Origin: Undaria pinnatifida
Taxonomy: Eukaryota > Sar > Phaeophyceae > Laminariales > Alariaceae
DNA length: 64,000 nucleotides
Direction: 5' to 3'
Assembly: GCA_012845835.1 (NCBI GenBank)
Contig: JABAKD010000029.1
Location: 6,227,905-6,291,904, forward strand
This document shows, in pieces, positions 463 through 50,080 of the stretch. The notes under the pieces are model-generated. The model saw only the letters and a program-made list of their open reading frames with translations. It did no database searches and was not told the origin of the DNA. How positions within the stretch are numbered: position 1 is the stretch's first letter; the number at the start of each line of letters is the position of its first letter. The position numbers were made by a program, and so were the translations under genes.

Positions 463-660
463 TCAGAATCGATGCTCTTACTACCATGGCCCGCGCATGC
501 GCCTTCAAGGTTTGACGGAGGTAACAATGAGGTTGAGGTGATGTGCGCGGAGAGTAACGGGAAATCACATTTTTCGTTCGATGATGGGTGGATTTGGTTT
601 TGGCGGAGGCCGGGGTCTGGTACGCAGGACAGGGACATGTGAGAGCGAACTGGGATCAAC

Positions 661-1479: not shown

Positions 1480-1650
1480 TTTGTCTCGGCCTAAGTATGC
1501 GATTCGCGGAACTGGAATTCTCGGTCGAATATAGCTTGGTTCGAGCGCCGCCTTCGGGGGGCGGCTCCAACGCCCCTCGCCCTGCCGTGTCCGTTCCGCA
1601 CATCGACGTGAACGCGGACGGGTGCCGAGCAAGACGAGCGAGAAGTTGAA
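1480..1650. repeat. Dispersed repeat D, copy 1 (shared with 58.9 kb)
   Basis: Shares TCTCGGCCT, GAACTGGAATTCT-GGTC, TTCGAGCGCCG, CCCCTCGCCCTGCCGT and GTTCCGCAC with 58887-59052, in the same orientation. The plus-frame translation of both copies keeps SNAPRPAVSVPH, so the peptide may be the conserved unit. Family unknown. Confidence 0.75.
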
Positions 1651-2031
1651 AAAATACCGCATGTCAAGGAGGAATTTTGGAAAAATTGTTGAATCTTAAT
1701 GGCTGCAACGCCTGAATTATGTACAATATTGGCATCATGTCCAAACGGTACGTGATAATGTTTAAAATTTTGCGGTGGCATACTCTCGAGCGTTAGTTTC
1801 TTTTCTGTACTTCTTCACTAGTTCGTTTGGTTTCTTGCCCGGCCTTTTTATTGCTTTTGTTTCTGCTCGTTTTGCCAGCTGGAAATTCACTTTTTTAGTG
1901 TGGGTTCACCTAAAACGTCACACAAGTTACCGACGATATCCAACAACTTCGCGACACAAATTACCGACGGCAAAACGTTTCGTGACGAAATAACTCCCAA
2001 ACCATGGAATCATGACATTTTCATGTAACAG

Positions 2032-2960
2032 AATCTCGAGACAAAACCGAGCAGGTAGAGCCGTCTCTTCGGCCTTTGACCCTGGCTTTAGCATGGCCGT
2101 TGACACTCCAAGCAGCCTCTGATGTAGGCATGAACGGGTGCGGTTGATTCGCAGCGAACCATCCCGCTGTGCTCGCTTCTATGTGGCCTTTGTCCACGCC
2201 ATTTCATGTCACCTCCCTTCTGTGTTGAGCTCGTCGTCGTCGTGCCGTCGAGGTACGAGGAAACCCTCACGTACTGGGTGAGAACAGCAGTATGTACGAC
2301 GAGCATGAACGGCAACTGACGACATTGGCAAACACACAACATCAGGTGCAGCAGCAGTAGCCGAAAGGCTAAACGTCTAGCACATACTGCAGCAACTAGT
2401 AGCAACCAGAACCACAGCAGATAGCTCAAAGTGCAGTACGAGTGCAGTTGGCAAGTTTAGTCGTACACGCATCACTCTGTCCAATATATATAACAAAATC
2501 TCGAGACAAAACCTAGCTGGTAGAAGAGCCGTCTCTTCGGCCTTTGGCCCTGGCTTTAGAGCGGCCGTTGACACTCCAGGCAGCCTCTGCAGTAGGCATG
2601 AACGAGTACGGTTGATTCGCAGCGAACTATCCCGCTGTGCTCGCTTCTATGTGGCCATTGTCCATGCCATTTCATGTCACCTCCCTTCTGTTTTGAGCTC
2701 GTCGTCGTGCCGTCGAGGTACCAGGAAACCCGTACGTACTGGGTGAGAACAGCAGTATGTACGACGAGCATGAACGCCAACTGACAACATTGGCAAACAC
2801 ACAACATCAGGTGCAGCAGCAGTAACAAAAGGGCGAAACTTCTAGCACATACTGCAGCAACTTGTAGCAACCAGAACCACAGCAGATAGCTCAAAGTGCA
2901 GAACGAGTGCCGTTGGCAAGTTGAGTCGTACACGCATCACTCTGTCCAATATATAACAAC
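2032..2960. repeat. Tandem duplication of a ~465 bp unit
   Basis: Units 2032-2496 and 2497-2960 both start AATCTCGAGACAAAACC and end in CACTCTGTCCAATATATA; they differ by scattered substitutions and small indels. Minus-strand frames are open in both copies (113 and 125 codons) and share Leu-rich and QKGGDMKW peptides. Those frames resemble no family I know and may be open by chance. Confidence 0.85.
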
Positions 2961-5410: not shown

Positions 5411-5440
5411 CATGGGCGCCGGCGAATGCCGGCGCCCATG
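5411..5440. repeat. Perfect GC-rich hairpin, 13 bp stem
   Basis: CATGGGCGCCGGC, a four-base loop GAAT, then the exact complement, in an AT-rich surround about 290 bp before the LTR element. On either strand it would fold as a strong stem-loop. Confidence 0.85.
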
Positions 5441-5732
5441 CGGAGCCCTTGTATGTACCTAAAAAGTAGACCGGGGTAGATTTGTAGGCGTGGATGGTGG
5501 TAATCGCAGTATTCTGTATTTTGTTTTTTTAGGCCATGGGGGATCGCACTGGATAATTTTGGTTAGGAGATCGTGTGGAGGCATTTCGAGTACATGTAAA
5601 ACCACTTGAAAATAGTGTATGGCATCTGCAAACACAATCATTTTTTCGAAGTTTAAGAAAAAATGCGGCAAAGATCCATTCATACGGAGCTTTTCAGGCG
5701 CTTTTAGCCCTTTTTTGGACTCCGTAACTAAC

Positions 5733-6019
5733 TGTTGATTGTATGCTTGGATATAATGCGGATATAATGACGGTTGGGTATTGTAGGGGTTTCCAGTGAT
5801 AAGTTGGCTACATGATAGCGGGATATCGGGATGGTGGAAATCCTCCGCCTATTTATCCGCCTTTCTTCCTGGCGAGCGCACTCCACGCTGCGCCTTGGCT
5901 AGGAGCAACGTAATATATATTTGTACGTCTTATACTTGTCTTCATACCGGTGACTCCACTACCCCACTATTGTCAGCTCAACGGGTAAGCCCTCTACGCT
6001 TCGTAGGGATCAACAAACA
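5733..6019 (+). repeat. 5' LTR of the Copia-type element
   Basis: 287 bp, nearly identical to 10366-10654 over its whole length. Starts TGTTGATT and ends ATCAACAAACA, giving short inverted ends. The few differences from the 3' copy suggest a fairly recent insertion. The interior begins CGATAATTATCG, a small palindrome. Confidence 0.9.
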
Positions 6020-6172
6020 CGATAATTATCGCGTATCGTACGCGGTATTACCCCTGTTAGAAGCAAAGGGTGTTGAGTGACGTGGGCTCTTCTGTGGAAG
6101 AGAGCTAGCTGGAGATATCACAAAAACAGCCCTCCCAGTAAAAGGGAGCGAGCTGGGCGCCTTATTTGAACC

Positions 6173-7030
6173 ATGCCTGAGGGCGAGGTTAACATGGGCG
6201 TTGTGGACGTGAAGGCGTTGGCAGCGAGGGCGAGGAGCTCTCGGCTGGCAAAGATGCGGGAGCTGGAAGAGCTGCTCGCAATACGGGACCAACTTGAGAA
6301 AGAAATCGAGGGTGGTTTCTGTTATGGTTTCCGAACAATCGACCAGATTTCGGCTGGATGGCGCGAGTTCTACAGAATCGAAGGTCGTATGGAGGAAAGC
6401 GAACTCATCATTCGCGAGTACCCGCAACTTCTCCTCGAGCTCTCAAGCTTCTCTTTACGTCTGGAGCGAATGCGAGGCATTTTTCAGCCGTCTCAGGTAC
6501 CAGAGAGGGGAGCGGGCGTGGCCAGATGTGAGTCACAACTCGTAATTCCAGTACTTGAGACTGGGAATGAGAGCACTGCTCAGCAGCAGCAGCAGCAGCA
6601 GCAGTTCAAGACGGAGAAGAGTTTTATGGTGGAATTAGAGACGAGGAGGAAAGAGCAGGGGAAGCTCTTGCAGCTGCCATTGAAGCAGCAGCAGCTGCTG
6701 CAGCCTACGGCGGCACCATCCCCTGTGTGGACGTCACAGCTCGTATACCCAATGCTTGAGACTGGGAGCGAGCGCATTGCACAGCAGCAGCCGCAGGGGC
6801 AGCAGCAGCAGTTTGAGACGGGGGAGAATGGATGGCTCGTAGACTTGGTTGTGAAACCAAATTACGAGCAGTATCTGCCGTGCTCCGTGGGAGCGCCGGC
6901 TGCTGAGCCCGTTGATATGTGGGCCCGGGTTGGGGTCGGCACGAGGTGTCTGGTTGTGGTGGAGGACGCTGGGTGTGGGAGGCACGGACACCCAGGTGGA
7001 GAATCCTTTCTATTGTTTGCACCAGCCTGA
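6173..7030 (+). CDS. Glutamine-rich coiled-coil protein inside the LTR element (gag position)
   Basis: 285 codons, beginning 153 bp after the 5' LTR in a good context (ACCATGC). Residues about 20-125 are rich in charged and Leu residues and look helical or coiled-coil (MRELEELLAIRDQLEKEIEG). Two related segments follow, each reading SQLV-P-LETG-E--AQQQ, with polyglutamine runs (CAG repeat at about 6581-6604); this looks like an internal duplication of about 80 residues. There is no CCHC zinc knuckle and no recognisable Copia gag domain. Its position argues for a gag-like product; it could also be a captured host fragment. Function not recognised. The frame is intact although pol is destroyed. 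Confidence 0.55.
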   Translation: MPEGEVNMGVVDVKALAARARSSRLAKMRELEELLAIRDQLEKEIEGGFCYGFRTIDQISAGWREFYRIEGRMEESELIIREYPQLLLELSSFSLRLERMRGIFQPSQVPERGAGVARCESQLVIPVLETGNESTAQQQQQQQQFKTEKSFMVELETRRKEQGKLLQLPLKQQQLLQPTAAPSPVWTSQLVYPMLETGSERIAQQQPQGQQQQFETGENGWLVDLVVKPNYEQYLPCSVGAPAAEPVDMWARVGVGTRCLVVVEDAGCGRHGHPGGESFLLFAPA

Positions 7031-8682
7031 GGCAACAACCACAGGTCATGTTATGAAAAATTGTTTTTGTCTGGGCTTTGTCTTGAAGTCATGTTATGAA
7101 AAAGTGTTTTTGTCTGGGCTTTGTCTTGACTCTAGAGTAATACAGCAGGTAGTGGACTTAGTTTTATGAAAATACATACCTGGTACATGAACTGCTGTCG
7201 CGATGCTGTCTAGGCTTTGTCATGATTCTAGAGTGGTACAGCAGCAGTAGTTGACTGACGTAGCTATGCTCGAGCGATGACATGTTATCCTTTGCGGCTG
7301 AAACGATCATTTTCTTTCGCATTATTTGTTGTCAAGACTTTGTCTTTCGCGATGAATCTTCGCAAAGGACAGAGTAGCTTGGGCAGAGGGACAGGCAGGA
7401 TAAATGATTGTGCCTGACCCCCAGCCCCTCTTGCCCCAACCACCGGCGAATGTGATTGCGTGTGGTATGGTAGCTCTGCTGATCAACAGGTTACAAGGCG
7501 TAGGATGAAGGACGCTTGACGGGTTGATAATAGATTATGTCCGCAGTAGCTAGCGCTTGCTTGCTTGCGACAGCAGTTTGGTACTTTAGTTCATTTTCAA
7601 TCAACCATTTTTCCTCACGCACCAAAGAGGGAAGGAATTGAGAACGAAATCGCCATCTCCGAAACATAGTATTGGATTTCGGTTGTGTGCCGTGAATTTT
7701 CCGAACAACATCCCTGGTACGATATCGCACGTCATTCGGTTTTACAGATTAATTGGTGACGGCTGGTGGCTGTAGGGGTATGGTCAGTACCAGTAGTATT
7801 ATATTTCGGGTACGCACGAGAGATGATGACAACATACATACGTGGTATTTCATGTGTGTTACACAATGCGGGTTACTTCCAGAATAGGTGGTTGTCAACC
7901 TCACCAGCGATCTAGCATAGTGCGGTACACGAAATGAAGAAACCGGTAGTGGGGAAATATAGTGTTACTCACGTTTTATGATGCAATATGTGGTGGAATA
8001 CGAGTATGTGGTGGAAATATCGGGATATTTTTTTCTCGTTAGACTGAAGATTCCACCCGGATCTTGTCCCCGTTATGCCTCGTACTATGATATCTGTATC
8101 ATGAATATGATATTCTAGTCTGACATGCTTTGCTTGGCAATGATTGATGATATTAATAGGATTTTGATCATGTTCAAGCCTCTTTTGGTTAGCCCCCTCA
8201 ACTCCCCCCGCGCTTATCGTGCGCGTGTGCAGAGTGTTATGATAAGCGGTATCCGCTGTATGCCGGACCACAAAAATATTGAGCAGGGAGAATGGGGTAG
8301 ATTATAAGGGTCTTATAGTCCACAGTTAGGTGCTCAAACATTTTATGTACGTAGTATACTAACATTTTGAGTACAGACGAAGATAGTCAACATTCTTGCG
8401 TTTGTCATGGAGTTCGTACCTGATACCGTATCTTATATACATACCAGGTACGCGTTTCAATCAAGATTGCCAAACAGTTTAATGGATCGTTATTTCTTTA
8501 CCGCGGTAGCTTATCAAGTAGCAGCATGGACTAACACTCTTGCAGCACTGTGATACTACGTGTCGCTCTTCCGGGAAGGAACACGCGGAATAACTTTACC
8601 CTTGATATAACAACCTCGTCACGTGTAGCGAGGCGTTTGCGCTCTGATCTATCGGTACTCTAAAACAGAAATAAACACGCAG
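7031..8682 (+). other. Non-coding interior of the LTR element
   Basis: No protein homology seen. A two-copy 47 bp repeat (TCATGTTATGAAAAA... TCTGGGCTTTGTCTTGA) lies at about 7046-7130, with a diverged third part near 7200. The rest is AT-rich without long frames, standing where protease, integrase and RT should be. Confidence 0.6.
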
Positions 8683-9273
8683 TTGAAGTCGTGCCATACC
8701 GGCATCAAACAGTTGTCGAGTGAACTCTTAAATATAGTGACATATTGCGAGATTTATTATGTTTTTGCGGGGTTTGCGGTTAATGGTGATATATGCGTTA
8801 GTTCGGGTAGGACAAACCCGCTGGAGGAAGGTCTCAAACAGACTGGCCTTTTTCGCGAGCTGATCGGATGCTTGAGAGCTTTAGCCAAGTAAACCAACTC
8901 GCCCAGGGAGATACACTGGAAGACGGCGGTTGGTATTTTAGATTATGTCTTTTTCATGAGTGATTTTGGCATTACTTTTCAGAGAGGCAGTGGACTGGAG
9001 CTGGTTGCGTATGCGGATGCAGACTACGCCAGCAAGGCCACTGATAGGAGGTCGGTTTCCGGTGGGGCTGTCATGTGCGCAGGGGCATGCGTGCGCTGGT
9101 TTTCGAGAGCTCAAAAGCGCGTGACATTTTCGATCACAAAAGCTGAGTACGTAGCACTGGCAGACACCATAAGTTTGAGATTTTCGGGGCTCGAGGACGG
9201 TCACGATTTTTGGCAGAATACCCGGGGTCATCCCCGCGTAATCAGTCTGTGGTTTTCTCAACTAGCCCCGTAA
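8683..9273 (+). pseudogene. Ty1/copia pol relic: end of RT and RNase H, broken
   Basis: One frame is interrupted by a TAA at about 8890. Before it the relic reads GCLRALAK, after it TNSPREIHWKTAVGILDY, matching the RT-RNase H joining region of Copia pol. RNase H follows: YADADYASKATDRRSVSGG, then VRWFSRAQKRVTFSITKAEY, with the catalytic Asp and Glu in place. Homology stops after YVALADT (about 9168), where a tandem repeat begins; the rest of RNase H is lost. The part upstream of about 8840 is not clearly homologous. Confidence 0.85.
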
Positions 9274-9566
9274 TGAGACCCAGCTGAACCAAATCGTTCA
9301 GTTTATATTTTTTGGGGGGGGATTTGGGGACGGTGACGATTTTTGGTAAAATACCCGGGGTCATCCCCGCGTAATCAGTCTATGGTTTTCTCAACTAGCC
9401 CCGTAATGAGACCCAGCTGAGCCAAATCGTTCAGTATATATTTTTCGGGACTTGGGGACGGCAACGGTTTTTTGGTAAACTACCGGGGGTCATCCCTGCG
9501 TAATCAGTCTATGGGTTTCTCAACTAGCCCCGTAATGAGACCCAGCTGAGCCAAACCGTTTAGTTT
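9172..9566 (+). repeat. Three-copy ~130 bp tandem repeat cutting off RNase H
   Basis: Three copies at a spacing of 133 and 128 bp. Each carries GACGG-ACGATTTTTGG, then ACCCGGGGTCATCCC-GCGTAATCAGTCT, then CTCAACTAGCCCCGTAATGAGACC. The array sits exactly where the pol homology ends. Confidence 0.85.
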
Positions 9567-10365
9567 TCATCCTGCAAGGAGTGGTCGCGCCCACCTCTTA
9601 CTGCTTGTGCGGGGAGGGATTCGCTTGACCACTTGAGAGGATTATGGCTCGTCAAGTAGGAAAAAGGTCTCAAGCTCGACGAGTTCGATACGTCTGAGCC
9701 CGAGGGCGACTAACATTTTCGCGAGCTGATTTGAATTGTTTCTTGACGGATTATTCTGAATATATTAGCTGGATTTTTGTACTGTGAAGAGTGCACGGTA
9801 GTTGGGGAGGCAAGTAACTGTTTCTTGAATAATAAAATATTACTGTTTTCACGATTGCGTTGTCTAGTATGGCATTGTCTTTCTCGGGATTAGAGCGTTT
9901 GGAATTTAAATTAATTTTTAGTATGTACCCAGCCGGGAGGCGTTTGTCTCATTCGAAAGTGAGTTTTGAGACTGCTGTCTAATCACACTTGTTGGCACCC
10001 CTGTTCTATGGAGCTGACAACCGTTTTATAAGGAAAGCTGAATGCTGATTTTAAGGCCGATGTTTGGGTTTTCGGATTAAAGTTTTCGGTCTATGAATTT
10101 CGGATTTGAGTTTTTGTATTTGGACTTAGGATTTTACGACTTACCAGGTAGATCTTAGGTTCGTGAAGATTGATGTTGAATACTGTCCCTGAATTGTATC
10201 TCTAGATTTATGGAGTGCTTGTTAATGACTATGGTGTTGCAATCTTTCTTTCTTGTCATGGACGTACTGGGAGGATATTGATTGACCGTAATTTTCATTG
10301 AATCGTCTTACCCTGATGATATGACAATATAGCATCATACCGTATCATTTACGAAGCAGGGAGGC
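9567..10365 (+). other. 3' interior of the LTR element, no gene seen
   Basis: AT-rich sequence between the tandem repeat and the 3' LTR. A short stretch at 9570-9720 may be the remains of the pol 3' end or 3' UTR. It ends in a purine-rich tract before the LTR. Confidence 0.5.
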
Positions 10366-10654
10366 TGTTGATTGTATGCTTGGATATAATGCGGATATGA
10401 TGACGGTTGAGAGTTGTAGGGGTTTCCAGTGATAAGTTGGCTACATGATAGCGGGATATCGAGATGATGGAAATACCCCGCCTATTTATCCGCCTTTCTT
10501 CCTGGCGAGCGCACTCCACGCTGCGCCTTGGCTAGGAGCAACGTAATATATATTTGTACGTCTTATACTTGTCTTCATACCGGTGACTCTACTACCCCAC
10601 TATATTGTCAGCTCAACGGGTAAGCGCTCGACGCTTTGTAGGGATCAACGAACA
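10366..10654 (+). repeat. 3' LTR of the Copia-type element
   Basis: 289 bp copy of the 5' LTR with a handful of substitutions and a 2-base (TA) insertion in its CCCCACTATATTGTC stretch. Followed directly by the CTAAC target duplication. Confidence 0.9.
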
Positions 10655-10659
10655 CTAAC

Positions 10660-12289
10660 CACCCCTATAGTAGTGTCCGTCTATATTTTCTCCTAAGCCC
10701 TTGAACAGAGTTGTATCATGTGCCTGGTGAAAAGCAAGATTTGGTGAAAACCGTTTTTTCATCGGTGATGCACCCATTGTATTAGGCTCCCGCGCGTGAA
10801 TTGAAGTATTTCAGCGATTTCGGTAGCTTTTGGTGTTGCTGCTCGCAAGTTCAAACTCACGAACACATCTCGTGAGTCGCTTCTGGCTGCTCACGACTGC
10901 TGGCTGGCGCACCCGACGTCGCCATACGCCCCCGCCAGGATCGTCCCTCAATTTGGCGGGTCGTGATTGCTTGTGGGGACATGTAGCTGCCCCCTAGTTG
11001 AGTGCATACGTCCTGCTGGGGGTATTATTTTGTGTCGTTTGGTGTTATTACCCAGCAGAACGTATGCACTTAACTATATATGTACCCAAAATGTTGGTAT
11101 CGCATTGCACAACCTTAAAAATTATTGTTCAAAATGTTGGTATACGACGTAAGAACAATATTACCCAAAATGTTGGGAAATGTTTAGATACAAACTTAAC
11201 TTATGAACAATATTACCCAAAATGTTGATCACCGCATTGCCTCAAAGTAGTGGTTTGGATCTCTGATGATAACCACAGGGACACCGATCTGAAGAAGCTC
11301 ACAACATCTGTGGATTATGGCTATCTTTTCATGGATTTCCGGGTCTGTGTTCCACGAACCAGCCGAAGCTCTAAACACAGCGTGTTAACGTAGTCGTGTG
11401 TTTACCGTTCCGTCAAAACATATGGATATTAGAGTAACCGTAGAAGCCGGGGACCAGGAGACGCTTGGGTAGCCCTGTGGCCATACGAGGGGCGATACCT
11501 ACTTACAGCGGCATCGTGAAGGCCGGCTATTGGTCACTCGGAGTTTGTCGCACTTTCATCGAGGGTAAAAAACCCGGCAATATTTCACTGCGCTACGATA
11601 CCGGTTGCAGCTTCTGGCAATTCACAGTAATTCGGACTCTGACGGGGACTTCACGTATGGAGAATCCCCCCAGATGCTTTTGGAATGTCGGTGGTGCTAA
11701 ACAAGTTGCGTGAGTCTTTGATCAAGGTAGATTTTCATCTGGGTAAGGTAGTCTTGTTGTTTCTCCACCATTGTGTGTACGGGTCAGAGAGCTCCCGAAA
11801 TGAGAAGCCCCCTCAGAAAAAAAGAGGCGCACTCACCCCCATCCCGAAGCAGGTACCCGTGAAGTAAATTTACAAGCCCAGGTTTGAACCACCCAAGGGT
11901 CCCCCCCCCTAACAGAGGCGAAAAGGCACTTCTTATTACACCACGCACAACGTACAATCCATTCCGGTCGACACGGGCAGCGACGAGGAGAGAACGGGGA
12001 ATATCGATCTTGCAAGAGAGATCGTCGTCATCGAGATCCTCACCTCTTGCTCCGTCCCGACAGGGATGCGTGTGTAGTGGTCAAGTTGTACCTCAAGCAA
12101 CTAACGAGTACTCCCAACCCGCCACCCTCTACGTTATAGCTATGACCGGACGGACCGAACCTACATATTGTCATATAGGTCCCCCCCAGGTATACCACCA
12201 GGGGGGGAGAAGGGAACACACCTGTCACCTCGGTTTGACCTGAAGCGTAAAATACCAAAGCACTGGGCCGCCCTACTTCTGCAGTAGAC
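10660..12289. other. Intergenic between the LTR element and the MFS 3' end; hairpin and short tandem repeat
   Basis: Contains an inverted repeat (11001-11020 with 11051-11070, one mismatch, 30 nt loop) and a run of ACAATATTACCCAAAATGTTG units (about 11080-11226). No recognisable gene. The part next to 12290 is probably MFS 3' UTR. Confidence 0.5.
11001..11070. repeat. 20 bp stem hairpin
   Basis: AGTGCATACGTCCTGCTGGG pairs with 11051-11070 with one mismatch across a 30 nt loop. It could be a small foldback element or an RNA hairpin; nothing in the sequence decides which. Confidence 0.7.
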
Positions 12290-15200
12290 CTACTCCCCAT
12301 ACATGACAACATTTTCCCCCACGCCGCCGTTATCGCATATCCTATTCCATCCCATGTACGCAACCGTCAGTCTAACCAAGGCAAGGAAGCAAAAGGAGAA
12401 GTGGTAGTCGAATGGGAAAGGATGGTCGCCGTCGATGGAGTAGGCAAACAGCGCTGAAGAGAGGACCGGGGCTATCGACCTTGCGACAGAGCTGGTCGTC
12501 GTTGTAATGCCGTTGAGCTCCCCGCGTCGACCCGGTGCCGGGGAATTGTTGATGGCCAAACAAACTCCGACGGAAAACTGCGAAGGCGGCGAATGAGGAA
12601 AATTGTTCGGAAAGAAGCGACACCGGGAACCAAATACGACGGGGATGCGTTCAGATTTGAGGAAAGTCCGAGAGCGTCAATATTGACTTGCGTGCAGATC
12701 GGAACGTTTGTGTCTTTTTCTTCTTTGCTCGTGTTGCTTTTATTCCTTCATATCGGCATCGTCTGCCGCCCCACTGTCACTGCGTGTCCCTCTCGGAGAA
12801 GACGTTGGATATTAAAACAATCCAGGTGTCTTGGGACTCAGTAAGACTACGTGTTCCCGCTCAGGGACTTCCTGTGTGCACTGGCAGCGCTAGTCACGGT
12901 CGACGCAAAACAGAATATCACCATTGGCTAAACTGTGAGACACCTTTGGGCATTTCTATCCCTTCGCTACATGAACCAGTCAGGTCCTACTAGGCGCGGC
13001 CATCGTCTCCCTTTCTTGGGTTTACTTCTGTACTGCAGGAACACTTGTCGCAGATGCCTGCTACGCCAGGGAGCCGCCGATTAATTTTAACTGAGGCTTT
13101 CTCCGCGGTGTTTAGGGCTCTATACGTCACCGAAAAACGCGGCTTTTGATAAAATATGCGTGCTTCACGCGGCGAACAAACCAACGGCGCAAGTAATTAT
13201 GGAACAATTACCGTACGACAACATTGGGATTATGACTCGACATTGGCTAGTTTGTCGATTGAGGAGCTCCCGCCAACGATAACGTTGCTTTCGCTGAAAA
13301 CATGCCACCCCATCGTAGCAATCGGCAGCACCCACTGGGTCCCCGAGCATGCTAACAAACGCAAACAAAAGACTAAGCACCTACTGAATCTATCAATGGT
13401 ACGAGAGCGAACACAGAGATGGTAACCGCCGGATATAAGGACGTTGAGAAAGGGAACAGAAAAACACTAATCACTTCCGAGCACGCTAAGAACGTGCACA
13501 AGAAAACATCCACTGGATCTGAACCCGCTGAGAGCGCGAAGAGAAGGCACGCGAAAAGCTAAGAACATGGAAAGAAAAGTACACACGAGATCCGATCATG
13601 TCAAGATCGCCAACCGAAAGCGCCACCGCACGTGATCCGAGCACCGTAAGAACGCGAACAGAAAAGCACGCACCGGATCTGAACACGCTTAGAGCGCGAG
13701 CAGAAAATCAACCGTCGGATCTTGGAGCACAGCATCAAGGCGAACAGAATAGCACCCACTGGATCTGAACAAGCTTAGAACACTAACAGATACTCACCGC
13801 CGAATCTAAGCACGACTAGAAGGCCAGCAAAACATTCACCCACCGCATCTGAACGCGTTCAAGTCACGAACAGTAAAAACCTAACCGGATCAAAGCACGA
13901 TCTGAACGCAAGGTTAACAACCACCGACAGTGCCTCAACACGATAAGAAGGCGACAGTAAAAATCACCTCCCGGATTTAACCACCGGAATGACGCGTGTA
14001 TTGGAACCCACCTACCTGGTTCGAGCACGCTAAGAACGTGAACAACAGGACGGCCGCGATTACTTGAGCCGGCAGTCCGGTGTTACCCATTCGGGAGAGA
14101 AGAGGTATCGCGATGTATAAAGGGACCTCGACGACCGAGCCTAGTCTCTGGCAGAACCTGACGCCCAATCTAGGCGTGATGATCGGCACGGCACATAACT
14201 CGAACGCCAGCAACATCACCCCGCACGCGAAGAAAACCTTCTCAGCGGGGAAGGCAAACCGGAGGGACAGGAGTTATCCGACGCTCGATGTGCAGGGGAA
14301 TTTTCCGAGCGTTTAATATGAGGAGAGGCCAATATCGAACCAGAAACGTCCACTCCAAAAACACATTTGTTCGCGCAACCCGACCACTATACCCTGGCCG
14401 TAAAACATGTAGACTATAGAGTATGAAACTATCAAACTGACCAAACGTTTCCATAATTGATAATCCTAACCGGTGACAGCGTAACAACGTCAGAGAAACC
14501 GTTTTGGCCCAACAAGAACAACCGCTACGGTGGGATGACTCAAGGTTGCGTGTGTGCGTACCAAGGCAGGAGAATCGCCTGAATTGCGCCCGAAGACAAG
14601 CACGGTAATGGTACCACTACCTGTCGTCAGTCCACCAAGATGTCAATAGCTCGCCAAAAATGTGATCCCTCATCATGAACGATTGTCGTTCAGCCCCTGC
14701 AGAGAGACAGCGCTGACCAAAGATCGTCATGCGGTTCTACTCCTCGCCTCACGCGGCTAAGGATGACGAGTACGATGTATATATGACCACGGAGTTGGAT
14801 CTCTCCGGGATTGGGAATCGGGACGGACGTTGGATCTGGTGGACGTCAAGGGGTGGATATAACAGTTTTTTGTAAAGACCACGCACGGATAAACGAACCC
14901 AACAAACCAGCCGTAGGTGATATGGTACAAATGCCGCGCTGCAGCCCTATGACCGCTTGAAGCATAAGTCTCAATCATGCAAGCGCCTGTATTTCGACCT
15001 GCATTCGTTTGAATGCTTACTGGTCAAGCTACGGTCGTTGAAAGGCCTGAACTTCGAGCTGTGTCTGTTGAAAGGCATTTGAAGCTCAGAGATTACGATT
15101 CCACGTTGACTTTGAACCAAACGCTTAATTGACCCCGGGCTAAACGCAAGCCGTGAGGAGATCGTTTCATTCAGAGGGGGCAGGAATCTCGTGCTGAGAC

Positions 15201-18200
15201 AAGTGCAAACCGAGAAGAATACGACTTTCAAGACAAGCTAGAATTATTCAAGGAAACCCGAGGCCTGATGAGCGCTGGTCCCACCTGACCGATCTCGAGA
15301 ACTGACCAATGTAGGCCACCCTTGGCCATGCTGCTGAGGGCCCACAGGGTGAACACGTTTTCCAAGCCGGCGTATGTAATCTGCCCACAGCACGCCAAGG
15401 GGGTGGAAGGTAGGGAAATGTCTGCTAGGCCTTCTCATTCGGCTTCTGTCGACGACTTTCCGCGTCCATGGCCTCTACAACATACGCTGGCGGGTCTAGG
15501 CTGCTCCGTACGTCAGGATAGAACTGCAATTATCGTTTGGAACGTATTTACACTATAAATAGGGCACGGCAAACAAACGGGACACGGGTGTACAAATGGT
15601 GGGCAAACAGCCCAACTACACCGAACACAATCCACCGCAAAACTCTTCCGTTACAGAGGGGAATCGTCCTTCCGAGCCCAATCATTGCGCGGTTCAGGGA
15701 CTTATCAATCGAGGAGCCAAACAAAACTTAAAATGCACATGCGCTATGGTGGAGCTACGCCGATTTTGTTCTCTGAGCTTCATCACTTGAGGAGACCTAG
15801 GCCCGCGCACAAAAGAGGTGCTTATGACACATTGGAAACGCACAACCGGATTAACAACGCCACGGCCAATGTGTACAAAACCGTAATCATTTCGCGAAAC
15901 AAGAAATGACATTTCGGCGATTTTGTCGTTCAGAAATATTTTTTTCTCCAATAATAGTGGTCAACAGTGGTCACGCTTTCCTGCCAAACAGTTTTCAACA
16001 TTTCTGAGTCATCAACCACAGCAACAACCTATGTATCCATTACTCCTGGAAAAATTACTGTGCTTTACAAAAACGTTCGAAATATAAGTATTATACCCAG
16101 GCCGTGCATGGGCTCGTTTATTATCGAGTCAGCCGTTCAGTTTTCATCAAAGGTCAGCATAGCGCTTCTCAAGCCAGGGAGCCCAAATTAAACGACGACG
16201 TTCACGGCCGCTTGCGCTGTTAGGGTGGGAACGAGGGACGGCGGTATGGATAGCTCGCGCTGTTGCTACCAGGGACTACTGAGAGACACGCCAGCTAGTG
16301 CTCGATTGCGAATACAACTGGGCTAGACTGACTGACAACGCGTATGAAAATATATGGAAGTGCGGTGAGCTTTAGTTTTACCCTTCTCCGTCCGCCGAAG
16401 GATAAAGCAAAATAGAAGAATAAATAATTGCACCCCTACCATACCGAACGTCGCTAGGCCCGCCGACCCCTGGCCTCCAAGCCTCCCCCCCACCCCCCGC
16501 ATGATATGGCGAGTACCGATCCCCCCTGTCCTCACCAAACCACTTATGTGGCGCATGACGCCAAACCGCACATTTGGGGGGGGGGGCGGGGGCGGGAAAG
16601 CGAGTGGCCTGCACGCACCGCGTATAGCGCGTCGATAACCACAATAATGCGGATGTGTTGCTGCCACAGCAAGCTTTTTTGCATGGGATCTCTCGTGTCG
16701 TGCTCGAGATTCTCCGTATCGTAGCCCGGACCCTTGTGTGTACCAACCACCGGAGACGTTAGTTCTGACTGCATCCACGATGGCACCCTTGAACCTCCGT
16801 CAGCATCTGTCGGCAGGGGAGACGCCGGCTTAGACGCTGGCGCGCTATTGTTCTTGCCGTGGTACCTGTTATTCTTTCTGTCGTCGTTGGTATGTTTGTC
16901 ATGGCCAACCGACAAGTTTGCACCAAAGTCAAGTCCATGGGCACACGGTATTTGGTGTTACAAAAGCAGCAGCGGGGAAGGGGGTTGTCTTTAGGGTGCC
17001 ATTTAAACTGCTACTATATTTGCTGTCGAGGATCAAACGTCAGGGGTCGCTGTTCAACTTGCTATCGTCGTCGTCATCGTTTTTATCTTCCTTGTCGCCA
17101 CCGCCACTCTTGCACCAGGACCAACTACGTACACACGAGCTCTTGGTTCCTTGCGAACGTGGGAAAAGAGGACAGGGTGTTCGACAAAGAGTGGCGCCAT
17201 CGTCACGCGCGACGTCAGAAGATTCCCTCACTGGCATTATGGGCACTGCAAGCGTTTCGTTGCCGAACTAGAATCATTGCTTCTTAGGCATATACGATGA
17301 CGAAATCAGGGGGTAACTCGTGCAAGTTGTGCTGCCCGCACGTTTCGAAAAGTGGCTGATGGTCGGACTCCGGCGCCCACCAGATATGGTACGTACTTCG
17401 ATGGGGTGGCTCCTGCCAGTACAGCAACCCCAAAGGAAACCAAACGTCTGGAAAAAATGAAAGTGCTGAACCGAATTAACACCCCCATGGGCCCAATTTA
17501 GGTATATCACGAAATGTAGTGTTACAAAAAGCATGCTGCGGTCAAGATGCGCCTTGTTTCTTCTGTGGTTCCCCGCTTGAATAGCTCAATACATCACCCA
17601 AACATGGTTTCTAAGAAAAGTTGCTGTTGAGATAACTTGTTGTTGTAGTTGTAGTTGTAGTTGTTGTTGTCGGTGTCGATGCTGCTGCTAACCGCGACAT
17701 ACGTCCTCATGTAGCTCAACTAACACGTGCTCACGTCAAGTTCTCGCTCTTGACGTGCGTGGAGTCCTTGAGGAAACCGAGCACCAAAGGCAGCGATATA
17801 AGTGCCATTCCAGCCAAAACCACGTTGGGAAGAAGGTACGGATTCCTGTCCATCAAAGGTTCCGGCGGCGTGCAACAATTGCAGGTCAGTCCCTGATAGA
17901 GCCCGACCGCGGTTAGACCCAGCATGCGGGAGAGAGGGATACGGTTTCACAAAGGTTATCAGCGAGCACGAGACGCATGTAACGGCACGGATGCACATTT
18001 TTGCTATAGTATTTTGAAGTTAGGAGCCCTATACCAGAAAATATGGCTGATAATGGGAGAGAAAATAATGTACACAGCTCTGTGACTAGTGGCATGACCT
18101 AGGTGCGCACCAGGGATAAGAACACAGTTAAAAGCAAGGCGCCGTGCAAACGAAAAGGCGTAGTTACTCGCTTGGGGAGCCCAGGCAATTAGAAAAAGAA

Positions 18201-21200
18201 CGATGAAAAGCTTGCTGCCCCTTCTCGTGTGATTCACCATCGGCAACAAGCGTGAAAACACCTCATCATACAACCGAGAGCACCGCGTTGAAACACACAT
18301 ATTTTTTAGATGGGTGCACACATGCCTGAGAAATCGCGGGTAGGGGCTTTCCATCGAAGCCCACAGCGGTTGGAATCAGTAGAACAGGCTGTTAAAGCGG
18401 AGACATTTCAAAGATGGCGGGGGTTCCATGCCGTCGGACCGCCATGTCGTCGGACTCATAGTAGAGGCAGTCGGTGGGCACGATTGCTCTTGATCTGATC
18501 TCGAAATTCCGGCTGCGGCAGCACGGTTTTTCTTTATTGCTTCTGGCTGACGAGGTTCCTCGAAATTGAGATACTTTTGCAAATAGCTGGTAACCAAGTT
18601 CAATCGAGGCTACGGTATATGGTACCCCCCCGTTTTCATTACCGGGTCTGATCCATTCCCGAGCACGAGTGGCGCTGCACCTCACTTGCCAAACCACGTT
18701 GGGTGACTTGTTGGGGCATCGTAGATAACCAATTAGTTGGGGATCCCTATCGGCAACGTAAACCAGTACGAATGGCTGAGGCCGCAAGGAACGGGGGAGT
18801 CACTCGCACGCGTGACCCCCCAGCCACTGCAGAAAGAGGGCCCCAAAACGAAAAAAAAAAAACCCGCCCACCGTAGCCTTCGTCGTTGTTTCTTACAAAA
18901 TTTGCTACCCCAAGGAAGGGTTTGAAAATTTCTTTGATGACTTTGACAATGTCATCACTGCTGACAATGTATTGATAATGTTGAAAGTTTTGATGATGTT
19001 GGTAATGTTGATAATGTTGATAACGTTGATAAAATGTTGGCGCTTGTTTATAATGCGGACAGTGTTGATGATGTTGATAATGCTGACAAGACGCTTGCAA
19101 TAAACTAGGTATCACATTTCATGTGAAACTGTTCCAGAATGAAGGAAACCCTTGACCCATAATCGTCGGTAAACAGCAATTATTTTTCATGACGCTCGTC
19201 GAGTATCTAGGCCATGGGATTTTCTACCCGCCGGGGGCACAGTTTGGTTTTACTCCGAAATTTTTTTTAGGGGAGGCCTCAAGCTCCGCAATCCAGGAAC
19301 ATTAGAGAAAATTGTGGTGCGCCTATATCGTAGCACGCGCCACGCTGCTCATAATAATGGCTGAATTTAATTTGTCCGGTTGACCTCCTCGAGTGACAAA
19401 CTACCGGTTGTCCTGATCACTGTATGTCGCGAGGTATGCTTGTTTTAGGACTAGCGCACACAAAAAGTCTCGGTCGCATTTCGCGAGGAATGCCCTACGA
19501 AGTCACGTTTCGGGCGACGGTGATATTGAGCTCGTGGTGTTAGTAGCTGAGGAACTCCCGCGGCACCCCTACCTTATGATTGCTAACATACGGGTGCCTG
19601 CGTTGCTATACCTACAGATGCGTGCTACGATATACGTGTGCACGACTTTTTCTCAGGCTCCCCACTCTACGAGCTTGAAACATACCCTAAAATTGGTTCG
19701 GAGAAGAATCGAAACGGCGGCTGGATAAAAAACTCCCATGGCCTAGTTATATAACAAAAAATACTGGTAAAAATAACCTGTTTCCGACGAGTTTGGGTTA
19801 AGGAGTCCCCACCATTCAGAAAACATTACAGGCCAAAAATTTACTACCCACTTCGATTGTAGCACGCGTCAACAGTTCTTAGGCAATGACAGTGTTCATA
19901 TGGTTTAGCGCATTTTGGATTCTCTGAAGATTCAGTTTTTGGACAAGTTATAGAGATTTCCCTCCCTCAAATGAGCAGGCCATGAAAAAAATGTATATGA
20001 ATCATTCGTACACCACACCATGCGCAACCTTCCCAACGCCCCAAGGCGCTCGCCTCTGGGTGCAACCAATGCCTTCCCGGTCGGTTAAATCCCGACGGCC
20101 TCTGTCGCGGCATTGTAAGGGTCGTCCCTAACGAACGCGAAAAGTTGCGTGATTCCTGACAAGATATCACGATTTTTTCCCGACATTTGGACAGTCTGAA
20201 ATATTACGTACGTTTGAAAAAAAAAAAAAAAACACGTTTTCTTTTATCAGGAATTTTTACGCCAATACAAGTATTCTCATGGTGTCCGTCAAATCAACTC
20301 AAAGCCAGGGTTTCTTGCAAAATGTCACGATTCGTGCAAATGTAACATTTTTGTAACATGATTTCTAACGTTTTTTTGGTTTGTTCGGGGATAACCCTAA
20401 GGATGCGAGGTTGCATGGTCTAGCAGAATACGCCAATGCACGACAACGGTTATCCCCCCTCTCCTCCTCTCCCCTGCATAGCACATGCATCACCTCCCGA
20501 ATATTCCAGACTCTGAAAAAGTGCCAGGATGGTACGTGGCCGGCTCCGACAACACGCCTCCGATGCCTGGTCCGATCACCTGTCCCAATGAAAATGCAGC
20601 TGTGGCGGTCGTAGCGTATCGTCATACCGTAACGAGACGGGAAACCACGGGAACGGTGGCGAACAAGGGGCGAAGGGGCGACGGATGGAGATGAAGGAGG
20701 TCGCGGCGGAGGGGGGGCGGTTGCGTGCGTTGATAACATTCATGGCCGAAATCCTCTTGCTCCGTTTATTGATGATACCTCCATAGCCTTTGATCCACAT
20801 GCAACCATCAAATTATCCAAGGTATTACTGACCTAGCGAGACACTTCACGCACTGACGGGGGCGGTGGCTTGCTTGAATGCGACAATTTAATAATAATGA
20901 TGGTTTGGTGTCGGTTAGGGCTCTCCGCCTATGCTTGGGGTATTTTGTTTTGTGTTTTCCGGGCTTGCACGAAATAAACGACGTCCTGCATGAAGTTGCT
21001 CTTTCTGTCCTTACGTGCTGGGAGACAAATGCTAGAATTCTGAACCACCTATCTCGAATTGTAGGCCAAGGCTAGCCAACCATTGCCGCTAGATTCGTCT
21101 ATCTTTTGTTGGACCACATGAGCACAGCAGTGTATATATACGTTTTAAGCGAAAACTTTTGTTTTCCCTGCCATGACGCCCATGCACATACATTGACCCT

Positions 21201-24200
21201 GCTAATCCTCCATCCTAGGTATATACAACAAGGTTGATTAGGGTTGTCGGTGGCATACCAAATCTTAATTCGGGTGAAGCGTAAGGTCAAGGCGACGATA
21301 GAGAGGTACCCCCAATTTCCCTTACCGGGTCTTCAGCAGTCGCACGAGTGACCATGTACACCACACTGAAAAGATCACGACGGGCGACTATTTTGGTGCA
21401 GCGCGGGTAACCATCCCTTTTCGTGTTGATGCCAAGAATGTTACGCAGCATGAAAAGCCTGTGACCGCAAGGAACAAGGGTGTCACTCGCGCGAGTGACA
21501 CCGAACCACTGAAAAAGAAAGGGTGAAAACATCGAAATAACTCCCTTACCGTACCATTGGTCGTAGCGTGCCATCGCAAAAATAAAACAGCACGAACGCT
21601 TATGACCCCCAAGGAGCAGGGGGATCACTCGCGCCATTGACCCCGAACCACCGCAGATGAAGGCCCCAAGAAGCACCATGACGCCGTACCATAGCCTTGG
21701 TCAACCCTTGGTCATGAAACTGACCCCCGCAACCGCAGCGCTGGTTTAGGGGTAGCACATGTTTGGCCGACACATTTCTGACCGGTCGCAAGCGGCTCCG
21801 AGGGCGGACGAACAAACTACCCAGCGTGGTTAGATGTTTGACATCATGGACGCATGCCACTGATAGTACGGTATAGCCTGCGCCATTACCTTTCTCGACC
21901 TTCTCACACTCTCACAGACTGATTTACACACATCATTGAGGAGTGATTTGTACCCTCACTGAGGAGTGATTTATACCCCTCATTGAGGATTGATTTGTAC
22001 CCCTCATTGAGGAGGGATTTATACCCCTCCTCAAGGAGTGGTTTATATCCCTCATTAAGGGCCTCATTGAGGAGCGATTTATACCCCGCGCATTGAGGAG
22101 AGATTCATACCTCTCATTGAGGAGGGATATATACCCGGAATTGTAGAGCGATGCAAACTCCGCATTGAGGAATGATTTACACCTCGCACATGGGGGAGGG
22201 ATTTACACTCCTCACCCAGAAACCGATTTTTGGAGTACAGTTGAAAGTGCAACCTGACCAGACCAACCCGTAGCTCCGGTATACACAATCATTCTTAAGC
22301 AAAACCCAATGTTAAGAGCCAAGGCAGCAGCAACGTATTGTTGTGACAAATGTTCAGTAGCAACTACAACAGTGCAGAAATATCATTGTAGCTACCGCAG
22401 TCAATGCTCAGGCGCATAGAATGCTGCTAAAAAAGCACAAGTATTGTCGTCAACGTTGTGCGATTGTTCTACCTAACTAAGCCGTACCAGGTATTTCTTA
22501 CGAGCACTGCCGTGTAAATGGATACGGGTACCAATGCGGTTTAAATACCATATGTCTGAGTAACGTTCTGGGCATGGGATGTTGGTTCACTGTCGGGACG
22601 TTGCTGTACTTACGGTTTCACGAGCACAACACAGGGAACGCTTCCGTATGTACGGTAGACCACGACAAGCTTCAGGGATATCTGCAGTAGGTAGATCAGA
22701 CAACGACTGGTGAGGTACCAATATACGTAGCCGCACATGTGAGCTGGTCGAGGACGGTAGTGCAAGAACGCACACCCCCACTCCTCTTGTTTGATCCCCT
22801 CGGTTGTCTACCTTCTTCTTCTACGTTCTTGACTACCAGCAGCGGCTACCTTCGACATGAAACATCTCCTTTGCGATCCAAGCACCGGCCAAAACGTTTG
22901 ACCACTTACCAGCGCAAGCCTGTGCTTAACCTTGCCGACGGTACACCAAACCGATCATTGAACAGGTCATGAGCCCCGACATACGTGGTCTGCGCTGCAA
23001 AGGCCGTTGGGACAATATTCCATAGAGTCTAAAGCTGACTGGCATCATTTTGTTTCTCATATTTTAACCTCCGGCGGATGTGTAAATATATAGCTTAAGC
23101 TCACCACACTTCCACGTATTTTCATACGTGTCGTGTGTCAACTAAACTCAGTTGCTTTCGCAACCCAACGTTGGCTGGCGCACCCTTCGGATCCCACTGT
23201 GGCGATAGCGTGAGCTGTCCCTATTTGTGGTCCTCGTTAGAACCCCGGCAGCGCAAGCTGCCGTTGTATATGGATGCGTGTGTATGTCGACCCGGCCTGT
23301 CCCCTGAGGGTCAGGTTCGGAGGAGATAGCCACCCGGAATGTCATCTTTCCGGGTAGTGTGGGACTTGCGTAAGCTCACCCACTAACAAAAACCCCGGCC
23401 ACGAGAGATGGCCCTCCGCCGCACTTGGTCCATATACGGTCCACCCTACCCATTCGGGTGTTGGTCCTCAGTGGCATCTACTACAAAGCCAACAGCCGCA
23501 TCGTCGACGGGCGGCGAGCTATATACTAGGGGAAACTGCATGCCATGGGCCCAAAGGTGCCTCCCCTATCGCATCACGCGCCGGGTGGTAAATCGACGCA
23601 CCCGTTGCAATCACATCTCACCACTGACGACGCCCATGCCCACGGTGTCATGCTCCTTGCCGCACACATCGGAAACGATTGTCTTTCCCGCCAACAGCGT
23701 GCCGTTCACTAGCCCTAGCAGAAACCTGGGATGTCGAACCCAGATCGTAGCAGCGTGAATGGGCTTTTATTCGCGAGTTACTCCTCCTGCGGCCGAGCGT
23801 ATCATGTTGGGTCTCGCAGAGAGTGTTTCATAGCCTAATACTCCACGACTTTACTCTTGTATACGCAGCGTCGATTCCTCCGGGGATCACAAAGCTTCCA
23901 GGTTATGGGCGGTGAATATTATTATCCACCAGTAGCTAGCCATGTATCGAAATTTCTTCGCGAACTGAAGTTTTACGCAATTTTTGAGGCGGTGTTTCTG
24001 GACCGCTCGAACACAGCCGGCCTCCAGTATTCGTCGCGTCGTCAACGAGCAAAAGACGACCCCCGAAAACACTGGGATAGGGCAATCAATAACAACCTCT
24101 TGAACACGACCGACGTATGTTTCGCCGCTTCGAACGGGACCAATCGAAAGCGTTGTCTGGAGTCGGACTCTAAGCTCTTCGTTTCAACTCTTAACTTGAC

Positions 24201-26425
24201 CGATAGACGGTGGTGCTGCTTGGACAGTGAGTCCCAGTCGCGTCGTGTCTGGCACCTGACGAGCCCCTTCCCATGCAATATTCCCTCTTACGCACGATTG
24301 CAGGTGTGACAGAGCACCATCACACCGTGAAAATAAAGCGAGGTGGTGTATAGTAGCCCACCAGCGAGGCTACGGTAGTGTAGTATAATACACATTTTTT
24401 AACTACCGGGTTTTAGCTACCAGGTATATCATACTCACACGAGTGACTCTGTACTAGATACTGCCAGACATGCTGGAGGTGGTTCGGTCGGCGCAGCGTA
24501 GCCAACCATTTCGTTCCGGGTTCGTGTTTTAATACGTAAACAGTGCGAAAGCTTGAAACCGTAAGAAACAGGTGAGTTACATGCGCGAGGAACCCCGAGA
24601 CACAGCAAACAAAATGTCCCAAAAGCGACCTCCCTGCCGTAGCTTTAATTGTGCCGCAATAGCGACTGCAGATATATATCACGCATTTCTCGCACTATAC
24701 GCCCGATCTGTGCAATATTTGCACTCGCATTTCGTAATATATATGCTAAATTATCGCACGTACATTCCCACTGACACACACTATGCGCGGGGCACTAAGT
24801 TTGACAATGCCCCCGATGAACTAATTCGCGTACAGTCCGTCAGTGCGTGTGGCCTGCCGTGTTTGAGCGTCTACCGTTTGCTCCGCTAGAACCCCATATT
24901 ACACGGTCGAGTAATCCCCACCTGAGGGCAACGGCCCACGCGAACGTAGGTGAACACCCGAAGGCTACGGACAGGACCGCCGTCGCGGAGAGTCCGAAAG
25001 CCATAACAAAACGGCAGCCGTATCTGTCGGAGACCATACCCCAGAAGTGCGAGGAGACCGTGCGGCCTATCATAAAACTTGCACAAAGCAAACCAGCATT
25101 GTATCCTGTGACAAATATACAACACGTACGCCAAAAACAGAGGGGGGTAAATCGTCGTTTTGTACCACGCACGCGCTATCGTGCGGTGTTAGATATACTC
25201 CAATAAGTGAGATGCACGCACCGGTTGTATGGGTTGATCCATCTACGTCGTGACACACGCTCTGAAGACACACGAAACTTGTATTTTGTGTTCTACAGAT
25301 CAGACGTATAGGTAACCCTGCACCAGGTATCCAACCGGCGGTAAAGTTTGTGGAAATCGCTGACGCGGGCGAAACCAATCAACTTCTCCCCTCACCCTTC
25401 ATGCAACTCGCCCAACACCTCACGGTACTTCTTGCTTCATGCACTCAAAGTCTGCCTAGTCGATGTGCTCCGTTCCGGGGTAGTAGGGCTGCGAGGATCT
25501 GTGGTCATACGACTACACGGCAATGCATGAAATATGTACACTCCCTCAATCCCCAGCACCCCGGCGGACAAACACCGGCAAGTATTGAACCTCCAGAACA
25601 CAGGCAACGTTTCGCCGACTATACATATCTTGCCGCGATTTTGTCCTTGCCATCGACAACGCCACGATGTTCCACCTAAAAACCCGGTTTGCCCCCTCGA
25701 CATTCACCCGGACGACCAACACAGTTGACCAGACTAGCCATGATCGTGAGACCAACACTAATGGAAGATGTAGAAGCTGAACTGTATCTCCACTCGCGAC
25801 AACTTGCAAGCGCTGCATGCTAACACGACACGCGTGACGCCTAGTTATTCCGATGGTCCTCACTCGAGGAAGCTCTACACTTAAGCAAACTTGGCTGGCT
25901 TGAAAAAAAAAAAAAAATGCATGGCCTGAAGACACAAGATACTACTGCATCGGCACAACACCAATTTTCCTCCTGAAGCTTTTTTACGTGACGAGCTCTA
26001 TTCCCCTCCCAAAATTCGGTGTGTAGTGGACTGAGAACGCGATCTGATGAGAAAACATATAGGGGAACCAGGCACGCAAAAAACAGTGGCTGCGAAACAA
26101 GAGTGACATTATTGTTGACACTCGGACGACTATGGGTTAAGGATCTCCCATCTATCAGAAAATGGTCTGGCAAAAGCGTGCTACCTCCAACGTGTCACAC
26201 GTGTGTAAATAAACGTATATATATGTATACACGACACGAATTTTATGTAAACACGCTAACGAGCAAAGTTGCTGTGGGGGTCTCACCAGCTTTGTCTTTG
26301 TCGTCCACAACGCCCAGATACTCCACCATGAAGCCCGCGTAAGCTACGACATTCATGCGCAGGACCATATCGGTGACCAGAGAGGCCATGATCGCCGCCA
26401 TGGGGAGATATGGAAACCCCGGCAT
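12290..26425 (-). CDS. Ten-exon MFS transporter (DHA1 / zinc-induced-facilitator-like), 558 aa
   Basis: Secondary membrane carrier, probably a proton-coupled antiporter of 12 TM segments; substrate unknown. Exons, in transcript order: 26425-26287, 25105-24922, 23725-23622, 20599-20494, 17845-17735, 17226-17059, 16877-16619, 15380-15285, 14237-14016, 12577-12290. All introns are GT-AG, and exon lengths keep one open frame of 1677 nt ending in TAG. Exon 1 ends VVDDKDKA; exon 2 continues GYNAGLLCASFMIGR and holds motif A, GMVSDRYGCR (about residues 69-78). Exon 4 holds antiporter motif C, GQVIGPGIGG (148-157). Exon 5 has NPYLLPNVV. Exons 6-7 make an acidic cytoplasmic loop (about 215-338) before TM7. 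Exon 8 has FTLWALSSMAKGGL; exon 10 ends the C-terminal half with LFAYSIDGDHPFPFDY. Start: the ATG at 26425 directly follows an in-frame TAA and an acceptor-like CAG, so a 5'UTR intron is possible, or an upstream coding exon is missed. The least certain junctions are exon 5/6 (weak acceptor) and exon 6/7 (donor GTTGAA, 181 nt intron). Confidence 0.88.
13390..14010. repeat. Diverged minisatellite in MFS intron 9
   Basis: Repeated units built on CACGCTAAGAACGCGAACAG followed by AAAA-CAC and CCGGATCTGA, roughly 45-65 bp each and about ten to twelve copies. It ends next to the exon 9 donor at 14015. Confidence 0.75.
18605..18880. repeat. Dispersed repeat K (GGTACCCCC...CACTCG), copy 1
   Basis: Begins TATATGGTACCCCC, then TTACCGGGTCTGAT and GCACGAGTGGC, and ends CGCAAGGAAC-GGGGGAGTCACTCG-ACG-GTGACCCCC with CCACTGCAGAAAGAGGG. 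The same module order recurs at 21.3, 24.4 and 26.5 kb. Confidence 0.7.
18935..19090. repeat. GATGTTGATAAT short tandem repeat in MFS intron 4
   Basis: Imperfect TGATAATGT / TGATGATGT units over about 155 bp. Confidence 0.75.
21297..21720. repeat. Dispersed repeat K, copy 2 plus a repeated 3' part
   Basis: GGTACCCCC-ATTTCCCTTACCGGGTCTTC, GCACGAGTGACC, then CGCAAGGAACAAGGGTGTCACTCGCGCG. The 3' module occurs a second time at about 21600-21720. A perfect 20 bp palindrome (TGTCACTCGCGCGAGTGACA) lies at 21481-21500. Confidence 0.75.
21934..22220. repeat. ~31 bp minisatellite in MFS intron 3
   Basis: About nine diverged copies of CATTGAGGAGTGATTTATAC-CCCT. The units touch each other with no unique spacers, which rules out a CRISPR-like layout. 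Confidence 0.85.
23225..23395 (+). repeat. Inverted dispersed repeat, arm 1 (MFS intron 3)
   Basis: Reverse-complement match to 40370-40525: shared GTCGACC-GGCCTG, CCCGGAATG-CAT--TTCCGGGTAG and ACTTGCG-AAG modules. Each arm has an inner stem of ACCCGGAATG / CATTCCGGGT type. Confidence 0.7.
24355..24660. repeat. Dispersed repeat K, copy 3 (MFS intron 2)
   Basis: CTACCGGGTTTTAGC, CACACGAGTGACTCTGTAC, GGCGCAGCGTAGCCAACCAT, CCGTAAGAAACAGGTGAGTTAC-CGCGAGG in the same order as copy 2, more diverged. Confidence 0.6.
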
Positions 26426-50074: not shown

Positions 50075-50080
50075 AAACAT

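What the first reader, a model, noticed from the sequence alone, without database searches (positions are those of the whole stretch)
12290..26425. A 14 kb, ten-exon MFS transporter gene hidden among short ORFs
Ten separate minus-strand segments each match a successive part of one MFS protein, are bounded by GT and AG, and join in phase to 558 codons without a stop. Split codons at the junctions give the expected residues (G47, R108, A143, R178). Motif A (GMVSDRYGCR) and motif C (GQVIGPGIGG) are complete. Only about 12% of the locus is coding.
Basis: partly seen in the sequence, partly recalled or inferred. Interest (0 to 1): 0.8.

Follow-up and report, generated by a model that had tools for sequence, protein, structure and literature searches.

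The report
Ordinary ten-exon kelp membrane transporter gene

Summary
The gene is real. Ten minus-strand exons between 26425 and 12290 join in phase to one major facilitator superfamily (MFS) protein (Pfam MFS_1, 86 bits, E 3e-24, on the 415-residue core). The window is Undaria pinnatifida: public model Undpi1 g12967.m1 matches exons 1-3, part of 7, 8 and 9 letter for letter, but skips exons 4-6 and 10. Two paralogues about 34 and 87 kb away show GT or AG at the same codon and phase at 13 of 13 tested splice sites each; a third at 10 of 10. Those two span about 26 and 25 kb.

Two corrections. My model starts exon 6 at 17124 (524 residues); exon 6 could also be skipped (502). Motif A is not quite complete: GMVSDRYGCR has Cys for Arg.

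Most likely function: a proton-coupled DHA1-type antiporter, resembling but not meeting the signatures of plant ZIFL transporters; substrate unknown. The only mildly new point is an intron inside the loop exon that three neighbouring paralogues lack. Ordinary; low interest.

The parts
26287..26425 (-). Exon 1 (ATG at 26425; ends in split codon G47, phase 1); start of TM1
   Evidence: 100% to P0001 residues 1-47; donor at the same place in copies A and B
24922..25105 (-). Exon 2 (phase 1 to 2); holds GMVSDRYGCR (motif A with Cys for Arg)
   Evidence: both splice sites at the same codons in copies A and B
23622..23725 (-). Exon 3 (phase 2 to 1)
   Evidence: identical to P0001 within the exon; both sites as in A, B and g12969
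20494..20599 (-). Exon 4 (phase 1 to 2); holds most of motif C
   Evidence: absent from P0001, but 56-65% identical to P0002, P0003, P0004 and P0011; both sites as in A, B and g12969
17735..17845 (-). Exon 5 (phase 2 to 2); TM6
   Evidence: 55-64% to P0002, P0003 and P0012; acceptor as in A, B and g12969; phase-2 GTGAG donor also in g12969 and copy A
17059..17124 (-).
   Evidence: 80-86% identity and one in-frame 6-base gap against L030-L032; AG at 17126-17125 in all four loci aligned; joins in frame
16878..17058 (-). Intron 6 (181 nt), weak donor GTTGAA; not found in three neighbouring paralogues, related stretch at three loci of contig C27
   Evidence: 73-74% identity with gaps of 1, 2 and 10 bases against L030-L032; contiguous loop exon in g12969 and copies A and B; DNA matches
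16619..16877 (-). Exon 7 (phase 2 to 0); variable cytoplasmic loop and start of TM7
   Evidence: its later part is identical to P0001; 82-83% identity and a 21-base in-frame gap against L030-L032, plus a one-base gap in L031
15285..15380 (-). Exon 8 (phase 0)
   Evidence: 100% to P0001; both sites as in A, B and g12969
14016..14237 (-). Exon 9 (phase 0)
   Evidence: 75 of 76 aligned residues to P0001, the odd one outside the exon; both sites as in A, B and g12969
12290..12577 (-). Exon 10 with stop codon TAG at 12292-12290
   Evidence: 63% to P0009 residues 245-339, missing from P0001; acceptor as in A, B and g12969

Best explanation
A nuclear gene of the kelp Undaria pinnatifida for a 12-helix MFS transporter of the DHA1 kind. 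It is read from the minus strand, and nine introns averaging about 1.4 kb are removed (eight if exon 6 is skipped), giving a protein of about 524 (or 502) residues. The protein most likely works as a proton-coupled antiporter by alternating access, moving a small organic solute or a metal chelate out of the cytosol across the plasma or a vacuolar membrane. Shown here: exon chain, intron conservation, family, motif C, predicted fold of a paralogue. Inferred: transcription, protein level, proton coupling, direction, membrane and substrate.
For: Pfam MFS_1 E 3e-24, 86 bits against a cut-off of 33.4. Kelp relatives down to E 8e-152, one being the same gene. GT or AG at the same codon and phase at 13 of 13 tested sites in copy A, 13 of 13 in copy B and 10 of 10 in g12969. 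Motif C complete. Paralogue P0002 is predicted with 12 long helices and a low-confidence stretch at 208-318, mean pLDDT 74.9, pTM 0.72, and matches NorA, MFSD10, VMAT2 and MdfA in the PDB. NorA is also the best PDB match by sequence to the window core, E 6e-12.
Against: No RNA evidence was available. The public model of this locus joins exon 3 to the middle of exon 7 and leaves exon 9 for an unrelated end, so a skipped or truncated transcript cannot be excluded. Motif A lacks one Arg. The C-terminal part alone (exons 8-10) reached no Pfam family. Pairwise dN/dS on short exons against the C27 loci is only moderately below 1: exon 5 0.30, 0.76 and 0.76; exon 8 0.33 (one locus); exon 7 0.61-0.93. 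The structure is of a paralogue, not of the window protein.
Confidence: 0.93

Rival explanations
1. The public model g12967.m1 is right: the real product is a 336-residue protein without exons 4-6 and 10, an exon-skipped isoform or a decaying gene.
For: It is the only model of this locus that I saw, and its junction from exon 3 to 16806 is GT-AG and in phase.
Against: It would lack motif C, TM5-6 and the last helices; the skipped exons 4, 5 and 10 are open and similar to those of full-length kelp proteins, and their splice sites recur in three paralogues. Its last 24 residues come from 13849-13778, which aligned to no other family member shown (that output was cut).
Confidence: 0.05
2. Exon 6 is not used: exon 5 splices to 16877, giving nine exons and 502 residues; exon 6 would be a remnant of a duplicated loop-exon segment.
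For: Exons 5 and 6 both end in phase 2, so skipping keeps the frame; three neighbouring paralogues have one loop exon; the donor GTTGAA is weak.
Against: Exon 6 keeps its frame in the four loci aligned (6-base gap), while intron 6 does not.
Confidence: 0.3
3. A plant-type ZIFL transporter (zinc and iron homeostasis).
For: ZIFL motifs 1, 2, 4 and 6 as printed in PMC3041735 (passages read) look alike by eye; not scored.
Against: None of the three ZIFL-specific signatures is present, and both shared signatures deviate.
Confidence: 0.15

Closest known systems
Undaria pinnatifida g12967.m1 (P0001) and paralogues g12958, g12937, g12969, g02654, g02655, g08255, g05679
   Same: P0001 is the same locus; P0009/g12958 is the sister on the tree (100/100, 56% identity over 330 columns); intron positions are shared with copies A, B and g12969
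   Different: P0001 is mis-modelled; g12969 and copies A and B have a single loop exon where this gene has exon 6, intron 6 and exon 7
Ectocarpus, Pylaiella and Ascophyllum MFS proteins (P0043-P0045, P0008, P0006)
   Same: One clade with the Undaria proteins, 100/99
   Different: Ascophyllum keeps Arg-Arg at the end of motif A; Ectocarpus siliculosus and Pylaiella read GRL there
Bacterial DHA1 drug:H+ antiporters (NorA, TetA class)
   Same: Predicted fold of a paralogue, motif C; NorA top PDB sequence match; NCBIfam Tet(A)/Tet(B)/Tet(C) E 2.4e-12
   Different: 46.4 bits against a curated cut-off of 475, so not a Tet protein; long variable loop
Plant ZIFL (zinc-induced facilitator-like) family
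   Same: Trp before motif A; a variable loop between TM6 and TM7
   Different: Lacks the Cys, His and TM8-9 motifs; Gly, not Ser, opens the antiporter signature

Membership tests
MFS_1 (PF07690) | Score above Pfam's gathering cut-off | tested here: met
   86 bits against 33.4 on the joined core; 82.1 on exons 1-5 alone; exons 8-10 alone gave no family at E 0.01
MFS_1 (PF07690) | 12 transmembrane helices in two halves | tested here: inconclusive
   Predicted for paralogue P0002 only; the window protein was not folded, and a hydropathy scan gave 19 overlapping segments that do not count helices
DHA1 drug:H+ antiporters | Motif A G-x3-D-[RK]-x-G-R-[RK] | tested here: not met
   GMVSDRYGCR: Cys for Arg, the other fixed positions kept
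DHA1 drug:H+ antiporters | Motif C G-x8-G-x3-G-P-x2-G-G | tested here: met
   GVVSAAFSLGQVIGPGIGG
DHA1 drug:H+ antiporters | Proton-coupled export of a substrate | not testable with these tools
   needs a transport assay
Plant ZIFL | Cys motif C-[PS]-G-C | tested here: not met
   absent; definition from passages of PMC3041735, which reports it in 58 of 68 ZIFL proteins
Plant ZIFL | His motif [PQ]-E-[TS]-[LI]-H-x-[HKLRD] | tested here: not met
   absent; by eye the position reads KDSTHVK
Plant ZIFL | TM8-9 motif [RK]-x2-G-P-[IV]-x3-R | tested here: not met
   absent
Plant ZIFL | Antiporter signature opening with Ser; W-G-x3-D-[RK]-x-G-R-[RK] | tested here: not met
   Gly in place of Ser; WGMVSDRYGCR

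The most novel reading that the evidence does not exclude
Intron 6 is a recently gained spliceosomal intron, made by a small tandem duplication inside the loop exon in the subclade that holds this gene and three loci on contig C27, and it turned part of the loop exon into a frame-neutral cassette exon.
Probability: 0.2. Interest if true: 0.4.

Novelty: new member of a known kind. Interest (0 to 1): 0.15.

Why it matters
It corrects a wrong public gene model in a farmed kelp and shows that a long-intron kelp gene can be read from raw sequence. The clustered paralogues with shared intron positions, one with an extra intron, are a small test bed for intron gain. Nothing here changes the view of MFS transporters.

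Tried and rejected
Chance ORF chaining: rejected, because database proteins and paralogues share the exons and edges. Two or more genes stitched together: rejected, because full-length kelp paralogues (P0002, P0003) run through the same exons in the same order. Filing as ZIFL: rejected on signatures. Exon 6 from 17226: rejected on comparison. A start at 17139 remains possible, but a 2-base gap just downstream breaks the frame against the related loci. Exon 7 from 16865 or 16844: less likely, because the AG at 16879-16878 is shared by the four loci aligned.

The tandem-duplication origin of intron 6 is only suggestive: exon 6 with its upstream flank against the following stretch scored above mononucleotide shuffles at L030, L031 and L032 (3, 0 and 0 of 300 reached it) but not clearly in the window itself (19 of 300). 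A literature search with five joint terms on brown algal MFS transporters and tandem duplication found no paper, which says little. The NCBIfam scan gave only matches far below their cut-offs (best 25 of 38 shown for the window core). Rfam and tRNA scans of the window found nothing. Eight other ORFs of the window reached no Pfam family at E 0.05. The protein searches scored only the 7998 and 7996 candidates sharing most words, so relatives may be missing.

Full report
What the window is. It lies in a 511,146,479-base genome in 68 contigs, at C36:6227905-6291904. That size is close to the published Undaria pinnatifida assembly (511,280,173 bases in 114 scaffolds; PMC7058681, passages read); the number of pieces differs. 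A protein of that species (P0001, jgi Undpi1 HiC_scaffold_29.g12967.m1) matches exons 1, 2, 3, part of 7, 8 and 9 of this window without a difference inside the exons. G+C is 49.8% against 50.14% printed for the genome.

The exon chain. Exons 1-5 and 8-10 were found by reading the minus strand for MFS-like stretches and joining at GT and AG. Exons 6 and 7, in the variable loop between TM6 and TM7, were found with P0001 and P0009. Phases fit throughout. The joined 415-residue core, which leaves out exons 6 and 7, matches Pfam MFS_1 at E 3e-24.

Independent proof of the edges. I took 100 kb on each side of the window and found three more family members by tblastn: copy A (+, 6180269-6206387), copy B (+, 6341436-6366125) and the g12969 gene (-, 6383255-6375599 for exons 3-10; its exons 1-2 gave no match in the stretch). 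At the homologous positions I looked at the dinucleotides: both sides of the four split codons 47, 108, 143 and 178, both ends of exons 8 and 9, and the start of exon 10. Copies A and B have GT or AG at 13 of 13 sites each, g12969 at 10 of 10 sites covered. The exon 5 donor is phase 2 in copy A and g12969 too. So the reading rests on conserved gene structure, not only on open frames. Copies A and B span about 26 and 25 kb, longer than the window gene; exons 3-10 of g12969 take 7.7 kb against 11.4 kb here.

The loop. A DNA search with 17055-16845 (intron 6 and the first bases of exon 7) found, besides itself, three loci on contig C27 at 71-72%, related over 17202-16590 at about 74%. This supports coding for 17124-17059 and 16877-16619 and speaks against 17226-17125. 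The result is 524 residues, 11.1% of the span. Exon 6 is in phase 2 at both ends, so leaving it out also keeps the frame (502 residues).

An extra intron. In g12969 and copies A and B the loop is one contiguous exon, so intron 6 is either gained in the lineage of the window gene and the C27 loci or lost in the others. The tree sister, g12958 (P0009), has a model without a break there, but I did not have its DNA. A local repeat between exon 6 and the end of intron 6 hints at a tandem duplication at the C27 loci, not clearly so in the window. Such an origin of introns has been described (PMC4974935; search listing and start of abstract only). L031 has a one-base gap in exon 7 that shifts the frame, so at least one C27 copy may be broken.

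Family and function. On a tree of 21 rows (the window in a 518-residue version and 20 of the 72 proteins found) the window groups with P0009 (100/100), inside a set of eight Undaria rows (94/94), next to Ascophyllum and then Ectocarpus and Pylaiella. Paralogue P0002 is predicted with 12 long helices and a low-confidence central stretch; 432 PDB chains match at E 0.001 or better, led by NorA, with MFSD10 fourth. Motif C is complete, motif A lacks one Arg. Plant ZIFL signatures, as defined in PMC3041735 (passages read), are absent. I therefore call it DHA1-type and ZIFL-like in looks, without filing it as ZIFL; transport, coupling and substrate are inference from the family.

How unusual. The nine introns average 1396 bases. 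Saccharina japonica introns average 1203 and Ectocarpus siliculosus 703.8 bases, with 4.63 and 6.98 introns per gene (PMC6507550, passages read), and PMC12116465 speaks of long intronic regions often seen in Laminariales (passage read). Against 'ordinary length': average gene lengths are printed as 5591 bp for S. japonica and 6859 bp for E. siliculosus, and as 2,089 bp for Undaria (without saying whether introns are counted in what I saw). So the intron lengths are ordinary, the gene is two to three times longer than the two former averages, and two close paralogues are longer still. What is useful is the correction of the public model, which lacks exons 4, 5, 6 and 10 and ends in 24 residues from 13849-13778.

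Noticed in passing
window 26425-12290 and P0001: Public gene model g12967.m1 skips exons 4-6 and 10 and adds 24 residues from 13849-13778.
   Followed up: yes
motif A in P0001 (same locus as the window), P0002, P0003, P0004, P0005, P0007, P0012, P0042: In the 8 Undaria records in which the pattern was found, the penultimate Arg of motif A is Cys, Ser, Gln, Asn or Thr, while both Ascophyllum records keep Arg (18 database records scanned).
   Followed up: partly
L030, L031, L032 (contig C27, about 300 kb apart end to end): Three related loci that share the intron 6 stretch; L031 has a frame-shifting one-base gap in exon 7, so it may be a pseudogene.
   Followed up: partly
L002, L003 (contig C50, 200,775 bases): Two MFS_1 matches lie in unbroken single frames of 403 and 419 residues on a short contig, which may be a bacterial contaminant in the assembly.
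   Followed up: no
window 50000-56000: G+C rises to 57-61% with strong strand skew and several overlapping long ORFs; the ORFs at 51669-52535 and 56100-56783 matched no Pfam family at E 0.05.
   Followed up: no
window 2026-2955 and 63201-63844: Tandem repeats of about two copies with units of 465 and 303 bases, 92% and 95% matches.
   Followed up: no
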